Below, piece after piece: positions 2,020-7,039 of a stretch of 13,273 nt of DNA (the first letter of the stretch is position 1; each line of letters opens with the position of its first letter). The notes under the pieces are model-generated. The model searched no databases and was not told the origin of the DNA. It was given only the letters and a program-made list of their open reading frames with translations. The stretch is from positions 1-13,273 of the forward strand of contig JAITAM010000089.1 of NCBI GenBank assembly GCA_031284085.1. Direction: 5' to 3'. This DNA is from Spirochaetaceae bacterium. GTDB lineage: Bacteria; Spirochaetota; Spirochaetia; Treponematales; Breznakiellaceae. The position numbers were made by a program, and so were the translations under genes.

Positions 2020-2335
2020 CTTGAATAAATCTAAGCTTTATAGTAAAGTTATAACTGTTTAGAACAAAACATTAGTTGGGTGCAACTAGGAGAGCAATCA
2101 TCTATCAAATAGACATCCTGTTAATGTTAATTTTTATATTTAGGAAGACGATAAAAAAGTACTGCCGGTTTTCGGCTATTGCTACATGCGTGGCCGGCAT
2201 ATACTATAGGTAATTGTAAGAGGAAGCGGGCGAATACTTGCTGCTATGTGAGTGCGGTCATTACCTGTCGGTAATGGATATGCAGGTACAAAATGCGCTA
2301 GTAAAGCCTGTGCCTCTAGAATTGGCGGTGCGTAT
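2020..2335. other. Non-coding gap after gyrB with small hairpins
   Basis: No recognisable gene lies here on either strand. Three short perfect hairpins are visible. They are TAGTTG/CAACTA with loop GGTG (2073-2088), TCTAT/ATAGA (2101-2113), and CATTACC/GGTAATG with loop TGTC (2259-2276). None is followed by a T-run, so no convincing gyrB terminator is seen. A 41-codon open stretch (2220-2342) has no credible start or family resemblance. The promoter for the first lipoprotein gene probably lies in or just after this gap, but I cannot place it. Confidence 0.5.
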
Positions 2336-2340
2336 TTATT

Positions 2341-2454
2341 GTTGAATAGTTCTGCTAGATACTAGCAGTAATTCCTGGAGTAATTTGGGAAATACTTTTG
2401 TTTTAAGGAGGTCAGGTAAAACTGGCCGGTGTGTTGTTCTACACCGGAGATTGT
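2341..2454 (+). promoter_or_regulatory. Structured 5' leader, copy 1
   Basis: This leader is homologous to the one at 3138-3264. In order it holds hairpin P1 (CTGCTAG/CTAGCAG, 2352-2368), P2 (2372-2391, several G-U pairs), a Shine-Dalgarno AAGGAGG (2405-2411), hairpin A (TCAG/CTGG around loop GTAAAA, 2412-2425), hairpin B (CCGGTGT/ACACCGG, 2426-2447), then seven bases and the ATG at 2455. The Shine-Dalgarno is 43 bases from the AUG in linear sequence but 7 once A and B fold. Hairpin A can also extend to GGTCAG/CTGGCC, taking bases from the Shine-Dalgarno and from B. The helices are seen directly; a role in translation control is inferred. Confidence 0.65.
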
Positions 2455-2985
2455 ATGAAGAGAATTGTTTCTATTACGGCAGCTGCTATTTTTGTGTTTG
2501 CATCGTGTACTAGTAACCCTCCGGCTACTTCTTCTAAAGGAACGGAAGAACAATCTTCTGTTTCAAAAGATGTGGTAGATTTTAGCGTAATTTCATCTGA
2601 AGTATGGAAATTAACGGAAATACGGACTGAGAATGAAATAATAGCGGTGCAACGAGCAGCCGATCAAGCTGATTTGTTTACCCTTGAATTTAAGGAGGGC
2701 CATATTTATGGTAAGGCCGCGCCAAACCGTTACAATGGGCCCTACACGAACGGAGAAGATGAGAGCCTAACAATTGGTAATGCTGCAAGCACTTTGATGA
2801 TGGGTGTTAATATGCCGGCAAGACCTACAGAAGCTGAGTATTTTGCTTATTTAAGCAAGGTTAGTCACTATAAGATAGATGAACAAACATTTGCTTTGTA
2901 TAGTAAAGATGAAGCAGGTAAGGAAGTGATATTGCTCTTTTTACCGCTTATAGAGACGGACGTGGAAGGTTCTCCTCTAAATTAA
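2455..2985 (+). CDS. META/HslJ-type lipoprotein (paralog 1)
   Basis: This is a predicted 176-residue lipoprotein. Its signal peptide (MKRIVSITAAAIFVFASC) ends at a lipobox with acylated Cys18, followed by a Ser/Thr/Lys-rich linker. From about residue 49 the sequence follows the META/HslJ (DUF306) pattern: VWKLTEI, then GKAAPNRYNGPYT, the TIGNAASTLMMG segment, a T-E-x-E-Y-F-x-Y-L helix, and a final LLFL strand. E. coli HslJ is a heat-inducible membrane protein linked to novobiocin tolerance; the biochemical role of the family is not settled. The ATG at 2455 is chosen because it begins the signal peptide; the GTG at 2431 lies inside a conserved leader hairpin. The gene is a paralog of the one at 3265, sharing domain, signal peptide style and leader, which points to tandem duplication. 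No terminator is evident after the stop. Confidence 0.85.
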   Translation: MKRIVSITAAAIFVFASCTSNPPATSSKGTEEQSSVSKDVVDFSVISSEVWKLTEIRTENEIIAVQRAADQADLFTLEFKEGHIYGKAAPNRYNGPYTNGEDESLTIGNAASTLMMGVNMPARPTEAEYFAYLSKVSHYKIDEQTFALYSKDEAGKEVILLFLPLIETDVEGSPLN

Positions 2986-3137
2986 AAAGGTTCGTAAGAA
3001 CGCCCGAAAAGCTAGAAGGAAATTCGCCGGTGAAACGTCAGGTAATGCCTTTTGAGAATATAATTTCGGCTGCGTAACTATCCTTTTAGGGTGAAATAAT
3101 GTTCAATAGTGAGTATCTTGTCCTTGTTGATATTATC
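2986..3137. other. Spacer between the two lipoprotein genes
   Basis: About 150 bases lie between the first lipoprotein stop and the start of the second structured leader. I see no gene, no strong terminator and no consensus promoter here. The clear similarity to the region upstream of paralog 1 begins only at about 3132-3138, so the duplicated unit seems to start at the leader. Confidence 0.4.
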
Positions 3138-3264
3138 ATTGAATAGTTCTGCTAGATTCCTAGCAGGAATATTAAAATTCCTGAAGTATTCAGGAAATAT
3201 TTTTACTAAGGGAGGTCGGGTAAAACCGGCCGGTATTTATCTTTCTTAAATACCGGAATTTTTT
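3138..3264 (+). promoter_or_regulatory. Structured 5' leader, copy 2
   Basis: This is the second copy of the leader at 2341-2454, and it shares the 17-base block GAATAGTTCTGCTAGAT. It holds P1 (CTGCTAG/CTAGCAG, loop ATTC, 3149-3166), P2 (TTCCTGAA/TTCAGGAA, 3178-3196), a Shine-Dalgarno AAGGGAGG (3208-3215), hairpin A (TCGG/CCGG around GTAAAA, 3216-3229), and hairpin B (CCGGTATTTA/TAAATACCGG, 3230-3256). AATTTTTT then leads to the ATG at 3265. The AUG is 49 bases from the Shine-Dalgarno, or 8 when A and B are folded. Compared with copy 1, an A-U pair in hairpin A has become G-C, and hairpin B has changed while staying perfectly paired. Hairpin B with its T-run also resembles an intrinsic terminator. 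Confidence 0.65.
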
Positions 3265-3843
3265 ATGAAAAAGATCGTTGTTCTTTTTGCAGCACTAGCA
3301 TTGGTTTTTGTATCTTGTAAAACGACTACACCTACTGAAGAAGTCGTACCACCAGAACCAAAAACTGTAGAGGCAGAACCTACACCAGAGCCAAAAACTG
3401 TAGAGGTGGAGCCTACTACACCAGAACAAAAAGCTGAAGGTGATCTTGGTGAAATCCAAGGTAGATTTTGGAAATTGAGTGAGGTACGGCTTATTGATGA
3501 TACTATTACTCTTAGAAAGAAGGGAAAACCAGATGATCTCTATGGAGAGTACTATACTGCATTCATTAGTGGTAGTGAAATCAAAGGTACGGCTGCACCA
3601 AGTACTTTTAGCGTTTCCTATACTGGAGATAGCATAGAATCATTGGATTTTGATGTGCTTAAAATCGAAGTAGCACCGTCTAGCATTACTCTTCCAGGCT
3701 TGCCATTCACTGAAGATGACTGCCTTCTTTATATAGAGAAGGGTATTGAACGGATACAAGTGATTAAGAATGAGTCGCTCACTCTCTTTACACGAGATGA
3801 GGATGACAAGGAAGTGGCTTTAGTCTTTATTAGTGAAAATTAG
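3265..3843 (+). CDS. META/HslJ-like lipoprotein with Pro/Glu spacer (paralog 2)
   Basis: This is a predicted 192-residue lipoprotein. The signal peptide MKKIVVLFAALALVFVSC places the acylated cysteine at 18. Residues 19-60 form a low-complexity Pro/Glu/Thr spacer built from 11-12-residue repeats (PEPKTVEAEPT), probably extended and holding the domain off the membrane. From about residue 66 (GRFWKLSEV, W69) a META-like domain follows: an IKGTAAPSTFSVSYTGD segment aligns with the GKAAPNRYNGPYT segment of paralog 1, and LTLFTRDEDDKEVALVF matches its end. The domain is more diverged than in paralog 1 and has lost the clear AST motif. The gene has the same structured leader as paralog 1 and is followed by a plausible terminator, so it may be its own transcription unit. 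The specific function is unknown. Confidence 0.83.
   Translation: MKKIVVLFAALALVFVSCKTTTPTEEVVPPEPKTVEAEPTPEPKTVEVEPTTPEQKAEGDLGEIQGRFWKLSEVRLIDDTITLRKKGKPDDLYGEYYTAFISGSEIKGTAAPSTFSVSYTGDSIESLDFDVLKIEVAPSSITLPGLPFTEDDCLLYIEKGIERIQVIKNESLTLFTRDEDDKEVALVFISEN
3352..3432 (+). repeat. Imperfect tandem repeat, 33-36 bases, inside lipoprotein 2
   Basis: Units begin at 3352 and 3385 (33 bases apart), with a partial third unit at 3421 (36 bases on). They encode PEPKTVEAEPT, PEPKTVEVEPTT and PEQKAEG. The reading frame is kept, so the unit count could change by slippage without breaking the protein. Paralog 1 has no such repeat. Confidence 0.75.
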
Positions 3844-6460: not shown

Positions 6461-7039
6461 GTGAAAGTATATATTGGACTATTTATTGCGATGATAATGT
6501 TGGTCGGCTGTGGAGATGAAGATAATATAACAGTTGCATATAATGCAAAGAATTTACAAGGAGTTGTTACAGGATGGGCAATGGGCGCTCAATCGGTTAC
6601 CTTGATAGAAGATGTTAACGATCTTGAAGGGCTTTTGTTCAAGTCTTTTACTATTCAGCAGGGTAAAACTTTAGTTATTGCAAAAAATAAAACGATTACT
6701 GTCGAGGGTACGATATTAAAAGCCGGTTCGTACACCGGCAGCTACGGGAGTGCAACCCTGACTCAGAGTGGCAATCTCTTGGTTAATTACGGTGGCGTTC
6801 TGTTTGATGCAGATATAACTATTGGAAAGGATAAAAAGATAAGAATACGAAAAGATGCTGCCCTCTGTGTGGGTAAACCGGATGGAGACAACCTGCTTTT
6901 GCAGCCGGATGAAGATGTTCAGAAAGATGGCGCTACTTTCGCAGCAGACGGCAATGCGGTAAAGATTATTGGCGGCAGACAAGGAACTTACACGCTCATT
7001 CCAGAGGGCGGTACGATTTCTAACGAGCTTAACGATTAG
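6461..7039 (+). CDS. Orphan lipoprotein, beta-rich, unknown function
   Basis: I do not recognise a family for this 192-residue product. It begins with a signal peptide (MKVYIGLFIAMIMLVGC) whose lipobox MLVGC makes Cys17 the likely lipidated residue. The mature part is dominated by alternating short hydrophobic strands and glycine/asparagine turns, such as KTLVIAKNKTITVEG, GNLLVNYGGVLFDAD and KKIRIRKDAALCVGK. This pattern is like a beta-helix or stacked-strand fold and suggests a surface or periplasmic domain. The start is GTG at 6461, supported by GAGGAGAG about ten bases upstream and by the signal peptide beginning there. It follows tkt by 33 bases and is closed by a strong terminator. Confidence 0.8.
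   Translation: MKVYIGLFIAMIMLVGCGDEDNITVAYNAKNLQGVVTGWAMGAQSVTLIEDVNDLEGLLFKSFTIQQGKTLVIAKNKTITVEGTILKAGSYTGSYGSATLTQSGNLLVNYGGVLFDADITIGKDKKIRIRKDAALCVGKPDGDNLLLQPDEDVQKDGATFAADGNAVKIIGGRQGTYTLIPEGGTISNELND

What the first reader, a model, noticed from the sequence alone, without database searches (positions are those of the whole stretch)
2405..3264. Duplicated leader RNA may bridge a distant Shine-Dalgarno to its AUG with two adjacent hairpins
Both META lipoprotein genes have a strong Shine-Dalgarno (AAGGAGG at 2405-2411, AAGGGAGG at 3208-3215) that is 43 and 49 bases from the start codon, too far for normal initiation. In both, all the intervening sequence except the last 7-8 bases folds into two directly adjacent hairpins (A and B). 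If these stack, the effective spacing becomes 7 and 8 bases, close to ideal. The helices are kept although the bases differ: TCAG/CTGG becomes TCGG/CCGG, and a 7-pair stem CCGGTGT becomes a 10-pair stem CCGGTATTTA. The hairpin A loop GTAAAA is identical. No alternative start codon at a usable distance exists in copy 2. Structure-assisted spacing is known from a few phage genes; I do not recognise this element as a described RNA family.
Basis: partly seen in the sequence, partly recalled or inferred. Interest (0 to 1): 0.78.

Follow-up and report, generated by a model that had tools for sequence, protein, structure and literature searches.

The report
Hairpins bridging distant ribosome-binding sites
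In a group of related spirochaetes, dozens of genes have RNA hairpins wedged between the ribosome-docking sequence and the start codon, and the hairpins seem to fold away the extra length so that the ribosome still finds the start at about the normal distance.

Summary
In detail: both META-type lipoprotein genes have a strong Shine-Dalgarno (SD) 43 and 49 nt from AUG, and two flush hairpins leave 7-8 nt. It is not peculiar to this locus. In stretches of four genomes of the genus, 10 of 58 long SD-ATG pairs hold such hairpins, against 10 of 930 for control motifs. A covariance model of a leader shared by unrelated genes gave 36 hits in 39 genomes; 33 are SD-hairpin(s)-AUG leaders, before genes such as metK, tpiA and HU. 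Over 45 leaders raw spacing is 23-78 nt, folded spacing 6-14 nt. Helices covary. Most orthologues examined outside the carriers have the SD at ordinary distance, and in two genes hairpin B is present in one species and absent in the other while folded spacing stays 7-10 nt. Best reading: structure-bridged initiation, as in phage T4 genes 38 and 25, used widely by a bacterium. Nothing was measured. The META leaders share the architecture, but their sequence membership in the model family is unproven (E 0.3), and one of four META leaders has a decayed hairpin B.

The parts
2352..2368 (+). upstream hairpin H1, copy 1 (CTGCTAG/CTAGCAG)
   Evidence: fold; aligned with copy 2 and the congener
2372..2391 (+). 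upstream hairpin H2, copy 1
   Evidence: fold; alignment
2405..2411 (+). Shine-Dalgarno AAGGAGG, copy 1
   Evidence: sequence; the genome's 16S 3' end carries CACCTCCTTT (L088)
2412..2425 (+). hairpin A, copy 1 (drawn by RNAfold as 2410-2427)
2426..2447 (+). hairpin B, copy 1
2446..2449 (+). near GGAG, 5 nt from ATG, half inside hairpin B (rival SD)
   Evidence: sequence
2448..2454 (+). tail AGATTGT, folded spacing 7 nt
   Evidence: sequence
2455..2985 (+). META1 lipoprotein-like gene
   Evidence: PF03724 META, E 2.7e-13; ORF
3149..3166 (+). upstream hairpin H1, copy 2
3178..3196 (+). upstream hairpin H2, copy 2, followed by a T-run
3208..3215 (+). Shine-Dalgarno AAGGGAGG, copy 2
   Evidence: sequence
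3216..3229 (+). hairpin A, copy 2 (drawn by RNAfold as 3214-3231)
3230..3256 (+). hairpin B, copy 2 (also scored as terminator-like with its T-run)
3257..3264 (+). tail AATTTTTT, folded spacing 8 nt
   Evidence: sequence
3265..3843 (+). META2, paralogue of META1 (no Pfam match of its own)
   Evidence: ORF; no family; match to META1

Best explanation
The leaders are split ribosome-binding sites. The 30S subunit pairs with a strong SD; one or two hairpins that start flush with the SD fold away most of the 23-78 nt; a tail of about 6-12 nt, mostly U-rich, puts the AUG in the P site at near-ordinary distance. In this spirochaete genus and at least two related genera many unrelated genes use the arrangement, partly as a dispersed leader RNA (hairpin P0, hairpin P2, SD, hairpin A, optional hairpin B, tail, AUG). 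Shown from sequence: the architecture, its excess over controls, helix covariation, near-constant folded spacing, and hairpins present or absent between orthologues. Inferred: that the ribosome accommodates the folded hairpins, that the far SD is the one used, and any stacking of hairpin A on the SD/anti-SD helix.
For: SD motifs 10 of 58 against controls 3 of 215, 3 of 166 and 4 of 549; the excess is confined to hairpins flush with the SD and 5-11 nt from ATG. 33 of 36 model hits are SD-hairpin-AUG leaders although the model ends 3 nt after hairpin A and knows neither B nor the AUG. Folded spacing 4-12 nt in 43 of 45 leaders, expected 24.7; whole geometry in 24 of 24 tested of the 45, expected 3.65, or 0.05 with stability. 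Double changes in 8 of 15 pairs on 22 sequences; in atpC 3 of 11 pairs between two species. uxaB-like: A and B in G003 (44 nt raw, 10 folded), A only in G000 (24, 7); HlyD-type: A and B in G000 (69, 9), A only in G003 (23, 7). L218: same upstream module, no hairpin, AAGGAG 6 nt from ATG. Orthologues with ordinary spacing: atpK 30 of 30, rplQ 30 of 30, fbpA-like 7 of 7, PEPCK in three congeners, META1 in G002 and jag in G003.
Against: No experiment. Folded spacing alone discriminates weakly, since shuffles fall in 4-12 nt about 55% of the time. G003 META1 has a decayed B. L317 and rpiA fold to 13 and 14 nt. The uxaB-like orthologue of G001 shows no clear SD near its ATG. Many start codons rest on my choice of ATG. 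Hairpin B often holds a conserved GUUUC that a pure spacer would not need (10 of 18 long spacers, 161 of 3600 shuffles).
Confidence: 0.7

Rival explanations
1. Regulatory leader: the hairpins bind a protein, a small RNA or a ligand, or melt with temperature, and so control access to the SD; the constant AUG distance is only a side constraint.
For: Conserved helices P0 and P2 upstream and a conserved GUUUC in hairpin B. Could hold together with bridging.
Against: The genes are unrelated (metK, tpiA, rpiA, HU, MscS-type, mannitol dehydrogenase family and others); stems of A keep pairing but change letters; B is absent in some orthologues; L218 lacks both hairpins. No Rfam match.
Confidence: 0.14
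2. The last hairpin with its U-run is an intrinsic terminator or attenuator placed before the gene, and the SD upstream is incidental or part of a switch.
For: Many tails are U-rich after a GC helix; copy 2 hairpin B scores as terminator-like.
Against: Ordinary SD-AUG spacers of the genus are T-rich too (44% T in 124 spacers; 63% in 20 bridged tails). Copy 1 B, atpC, rplQ and jag tails lack a T-run. Termination would not require the SD to be flush or the AUG to sit 6-12 nt away.
Confidence: 0.06
3. The far SD is not used: initiation depends on a near weak SD, on U-rich tails, or on a standby site with hairpin melting.
For: META1 has GGAG 5 nt from ATG in both species. Standby-site models allow partial unfolding (passages of PMC3936740).
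Against: Copy 2 and most other leaders have no 4-nt SD core near the AUG; the far SD is strong and kept between G000 and G003 in atpC, atpK, META and fbpA-like leaders.
Confidence: 0.05
4. DNA-level repeats: dispersed palindromic elements landed between SD and AUG, and folding has no role in initiation.
For: A leader module is shared by unrelated genes, and these genomes carry other repeats.
Against: Helices covary and the SD-hairpin-AUG register is kept. Repeats may still be the origin, with bridging as the reason they survive.
Confidence: 0.05

Closest known systems
Phage T4 genes 38 and 25, split ribosome-binding sites
   Same: A structure between SD and AUG shortens the distance, 22 to 5 nt and 27 to 11 nt, and destabilising it lowers initiation (passages of the review PMC3014915; primary papers not read)
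   Different: Two phage genes there; here many genes of a bacterial group, up to two outer hairpins, 23-78 nt raw spacing, and a dispersed leader family with upstream helices
E. coli thrS split ribosome-binding site and standby sites
   Same: The ribosome accommodates a folded hairpin in the leader (passages of PMC3936740)
   Different: That model places the accommodated hairpins upstream of the SD, not between SD and AUG
Termite-flg (RF01729) and Termite-leu (RF01730) RNA motifs
   Same: Candidate structured RNAs known only from termite hindgut DNA (table row of PMC2864571)
   Different: Neither model matched the leaders searched here; their structures were not seen
Intrinsic terminators of the form GGAGGTCGGTTAAAACCGACCTCC
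   Same: Two Lachnospiraceae records hold the SD plus hairpin A sequence as a terminator-shaped palindrome (L060, L062)
   Different: There the 3' arm pairs with the GGAGG and a T-run follows; here the GGAGG stays mostly free and an AUG follows

Membership tests
Split (structure-bridged) ribosome-binding site, T4 type | SD too far from AUG for ordinary initiation | tested here: met
   Raw 23-78 nt in 45 leaders; ordinary spacing in the genus peaks at 4-7 nt
Split (structure-bridged) ribosome-binding site, T4 type | Intervening structure brings SD and AUG to a functional distance | tested here: met
   Predicted only: 43 of 45 folded leaders at 4-12 nt; 24 of 24 with the whole geometry
Split (structure-bridged) ribosome-binding site, T4 type | Structure kept in relatives through base changes | tested here: met
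   exception hairpin B of G003 META1
Split (structure-bridged) ribosome-binding site, T4 type | Destabilising the structure lowers initiation; probing shows the helix | not testable with these tools
   Needs reporters, toeprinting and probing
Dispersed leader family of models R1/R2 (defined here) | Significant covariance-model match: do the window's META leaders belong? | tested here: inconclusive
   META2 3165-3234 is the best window place but E 0.3; congener META2 0.32, META1 5.2; window META1 no hit. Architecture shared
Termite-flg / Termite-leu | Match to the Rfam model | tested here: not met
   No match in 18 loci with leaders, in window 2300-3300, or at gathering score in 287 kb of G000
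Metabolite riboswitch | Coherent set of controlled genes | tested here: not met
   Downstream genes are unrelated
Intrinsic terminator | GC-rich hairpin followed at once by a U-run | tested here: inconclusive
   Copy 2 hairpin B yes, copy 1 hairpin B no

The most novel reading that the evidence does not exclude
A dispersed leader RNA class in these spirochaetes acts as a general initiation platform: the SD is shown between helices and the ribosome measures distance along the folded, not the linear, message. Hairpin cassettes between SD and AUG come and go in evolution while the AUG stays about 8 nt from the last helix, and the conserved GUUUC loop of hairpin B may contact the ribosome or a factor.
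Probability: 0.5. Interest if true: 0.88.

Novelty: new variant of a known kind. Interest (0 to 1): 0.8.

Why it matters
Folded SD-AUG spacing is known to me only from isolated cases. A bacterial lineage that uses it in dozens of genes, with natural zero-, one- and two-hairpin versions of one leader, would make the question of how the 30S subunit measures SD-AUG distance directly testable. Start-site predictors that cap SD spacing would misread such genes, and the leader family matches no Rfam model tried here.

Tried and rejected
A pseudoknot between the GTAAAA loop of hairpin A and the upstream TTTTAC was considered; the loop changes to TTAAAA in G003 without a matching change, so it was dropped. 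A scan of genome contigs for GGAGGTCNGNTAAAACNGNCC gave 10 records; only the congener's two places are such leaders, two Lachnospiraceae records look like terminators and the others lack the arrangement by eye. A protein scan of genome contigs found no confirmed relative of META1.

Limits of the counts. Orthologues and hits in G000 and G003 are not independent. The ten hits hold one doubtful case (L215, contig edge) and two ortholog pairs (atpC, atpK); G003's META copies are not among them. Pieces of sixteen other genera gave 0 of 8 pairs, and 0 of 10 with more loci, too few to set a taxonomic limit: G006, one of the sixteen, has two model hits elsewhere. Of the 36 model hits three are not counted as leaders: G000:C218 (cut by a contig end), G007:C28 (unclear), G146:C1 (chance-like). 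Of 46 leaders given to one (atpB) was not located; one search used 24 of the 45. The alignment was fitted to the model. That uxaB-like and HlyD-type genes of G000 and G003 are orthologues was judged by eye from their N-termini.

Full report
What was checked. The window is G000:C67. Both META leaders are as described: strong SD, 43 and 49 nt to ATG, two adjacent hairpins, 7 and 8 nt tail. The congener G003 (its contig C32 matches in length and hit positions a record titled Spirochaetaceae bacterium isolate Im510_bin15) has both genes with homologous leaders. Over the four leaders hairpin A always pairs, with one pair changed on both sides and one on one side; hairpin B pairs in three, and in G003 META1 two of seven pairs are broken. 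Raw SD-ATG lengths are 43, 49, 39 and 62 nt.

Beyond the locus. A weak DNA match in G001 showed the same arrangement before a PEPCK gene, so I scanned stretches of G000, G001, G002 and G003 (1.25 Mb, 1215 crudely called genes). With SD motifs AGGAGG or GGGAGG, 10 of 58 intergenic motif-ATG pairs 15-75 nt apart hold a chain of hairpins flush with the motif and 5-11 nt left to ATG. Permuted motifs give 3 of 215, their reverse complements 3 of 166, mixed motifs 4 of 549. Lengths of 0-4, 12-18 and 19-25 nt left give 2, 1 and 1 genes. Hairpins that start further from the SD are, with one exception, inner or second hairpins of the same leaders. Genes with the arrangement include V-ATPase subunit C (PF01992), a proteolipid (PF00137), L17, a Jag/KhpB protein, PEPCK and a solute-binding protein.

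A shared leader. A solute-binding protein (fbpA-like, my label), a mannitol-dehydrogenase-family gene (uxaB-like, my label), a HlyD-type, an MscS-type and other genes share a leader of about 120 nt: hairpin P0, hairpin P2, SD, hairpin A, optional hairpin B, tail, ATG. Model R1, built from six of them and ending 3 nt after hairpin A, hit 36 places in 39 genomes at E up to 0.01: 12 in G000, 16 in G003, one each in G001 and G002, two each in G006 and G011, one each in G007 and G146. I looked at all 36: 33 are SD-hairpin-ATG leaders (six were seeds), one is cut by a contig end, one is unclear and one looks like chance. R2, built from 22 sequences, added rpiA (E 0.076) and the hairpin-less L218 (E 0.0008) in 791 kb of G000 and G003. 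It also touches, weakly and at the right place, the leaders of atpK (0.0045 and 0.15), PEPCK (0.04), META2 (0.3 and 0.32) and jag (0.95). Downstream proteins include S-AdoMet synthetase, triosephosphate isomerase, HU, ribose-5-phosphate isomerase and, below the curated cut-off, a DAHP synthase domain and a response regulator.

The rule. In 34 family leaders raw spacing runs from 23 to 78 nt (sd 16.8); unpaired length outside helices runs from 6 to 14 nt (sd 1.8), with 32 of 34 within 4-12 nt against 18.9 expected from dinucleotide shuffles. In 11 further leaders (META four, atpC two, atpK two, PEPCK, rplQ, jag) 11 of 11 lie in 4-12, expected 5.8. Because short shuffled sequences also leave about ten bases unpaired, I asked for the whole geometry (first helix within 3 nt of the SD, tail 6-12 nt, at most 12 unpaired) on 24 of the 45: 24 of 24 have it, shuffles expect 3.65, and 0.05 if they must also be as stable (mean z -3.4). 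On 22 aligned sequences 94.6% of cells pair, 8 of 15 pairs have double changes, and sliding the partners by 1-3 columns lowers pairing to 27-51%; that alignment was fitted to the model.

Natural comparisons. uxaB-like: G003 has A and B (44 nt raw, 10 folded), G000 only A (24 raw, 7 folded). HlyD-type: G000 has A and B (69 raw, 9 folded, with a weaker SD AAAGGGGGG), G003 only A (23 raw, 7 folded). L218 has the upstream module, no hairpin, and AAGGAG 6 nt from ATG. Orthologues outside the carriers have an SD at ordinary distance: atpK 30 of 30, rplQ 30 of 30, fbpA-like 7 of 7 of those above 60% identity (a permissive rule: 4-nt core 3-13 nt before an in-frame ATG near the aligned start), PEPCK in three congeners, META1 in G002 and jag in G003. 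The uxaB-like orthologue of G001 shows no clear SD near its ATG. The simplest reading is that hairpins were gained between SD and AUG in this lineage.

How it most likely works. The 30S subunit binds the SD, the flush hairpins stay folded and project away, and the tail reaches the P site. Ordinary spacers of the genus peak at 4-7 nt after GGAGG and are T-rich, which the tails resemble. It works like the T4 gene 38 and 25 sites, where others showed dependence on the structure (passages of PMC3014915). Whether the upstream hairpins and the GUUUC of hairpin B regulate anything is open.

Novelty. Ten searches of the open-licence paper library, three of them worded for termite or Treponema, listed no title or abstract start that describes such a class; most subscription journals are not in that library. 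No Rfam family matched the leaders above chance. The principle is known, the scale and the leader family seem new, hence a new variant of a known kind.

Noticed in passing
L293, L296-L300, L302, L303, L307, L319 (hairpin B of family leaders): A GUUUC lies on the 5' side of hairpin B in 10 of 18 long spacers against 161 of 3600 shuffles; often UUUCC or UUCC stands opposite. A pure spacer would not need it.
   Followed up: partly
L060 and L062 (Lachnospiraceae): AAGGAGGTCGGTTAAAACCGACCTC(C) followed by T-rich sequence: the SD plus hairpin A sequence of G003 META2 occurs there as a terminator-shaped palindrome.
   Followed up: no
L255 (G000:C126), L254 and L258 (G003:C43, C77), L099 minus strand near 1600: Repeats built on GGAGGTCTGAC and GGACAGACCTCTGAC-like units, which resemble the SD region and the GGACAGAC of the leader family.
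   Followed up: no
L265 around 1500-1537 (G000:C48): A family leader whose hairpin B is reduced to its 5' arm and GTTTC; the ATG follows 11 nt after hairpin A.
   Followed up: partly
L314 (G000:C218, contig end): A contig end repeats the upstream half of the fbpA-like leader of G000:C5, cut off before the SD.
   Followed up: no
window 6461-7039: A 192-aa ORF with a lipoprotein-like start and no Pfam match.
   Followed up: no
window 3340-3435: META2 has a repetitive Pro/Glu-rich stretch after its lipobox-like start that META1 lacks.
   Followed up: no
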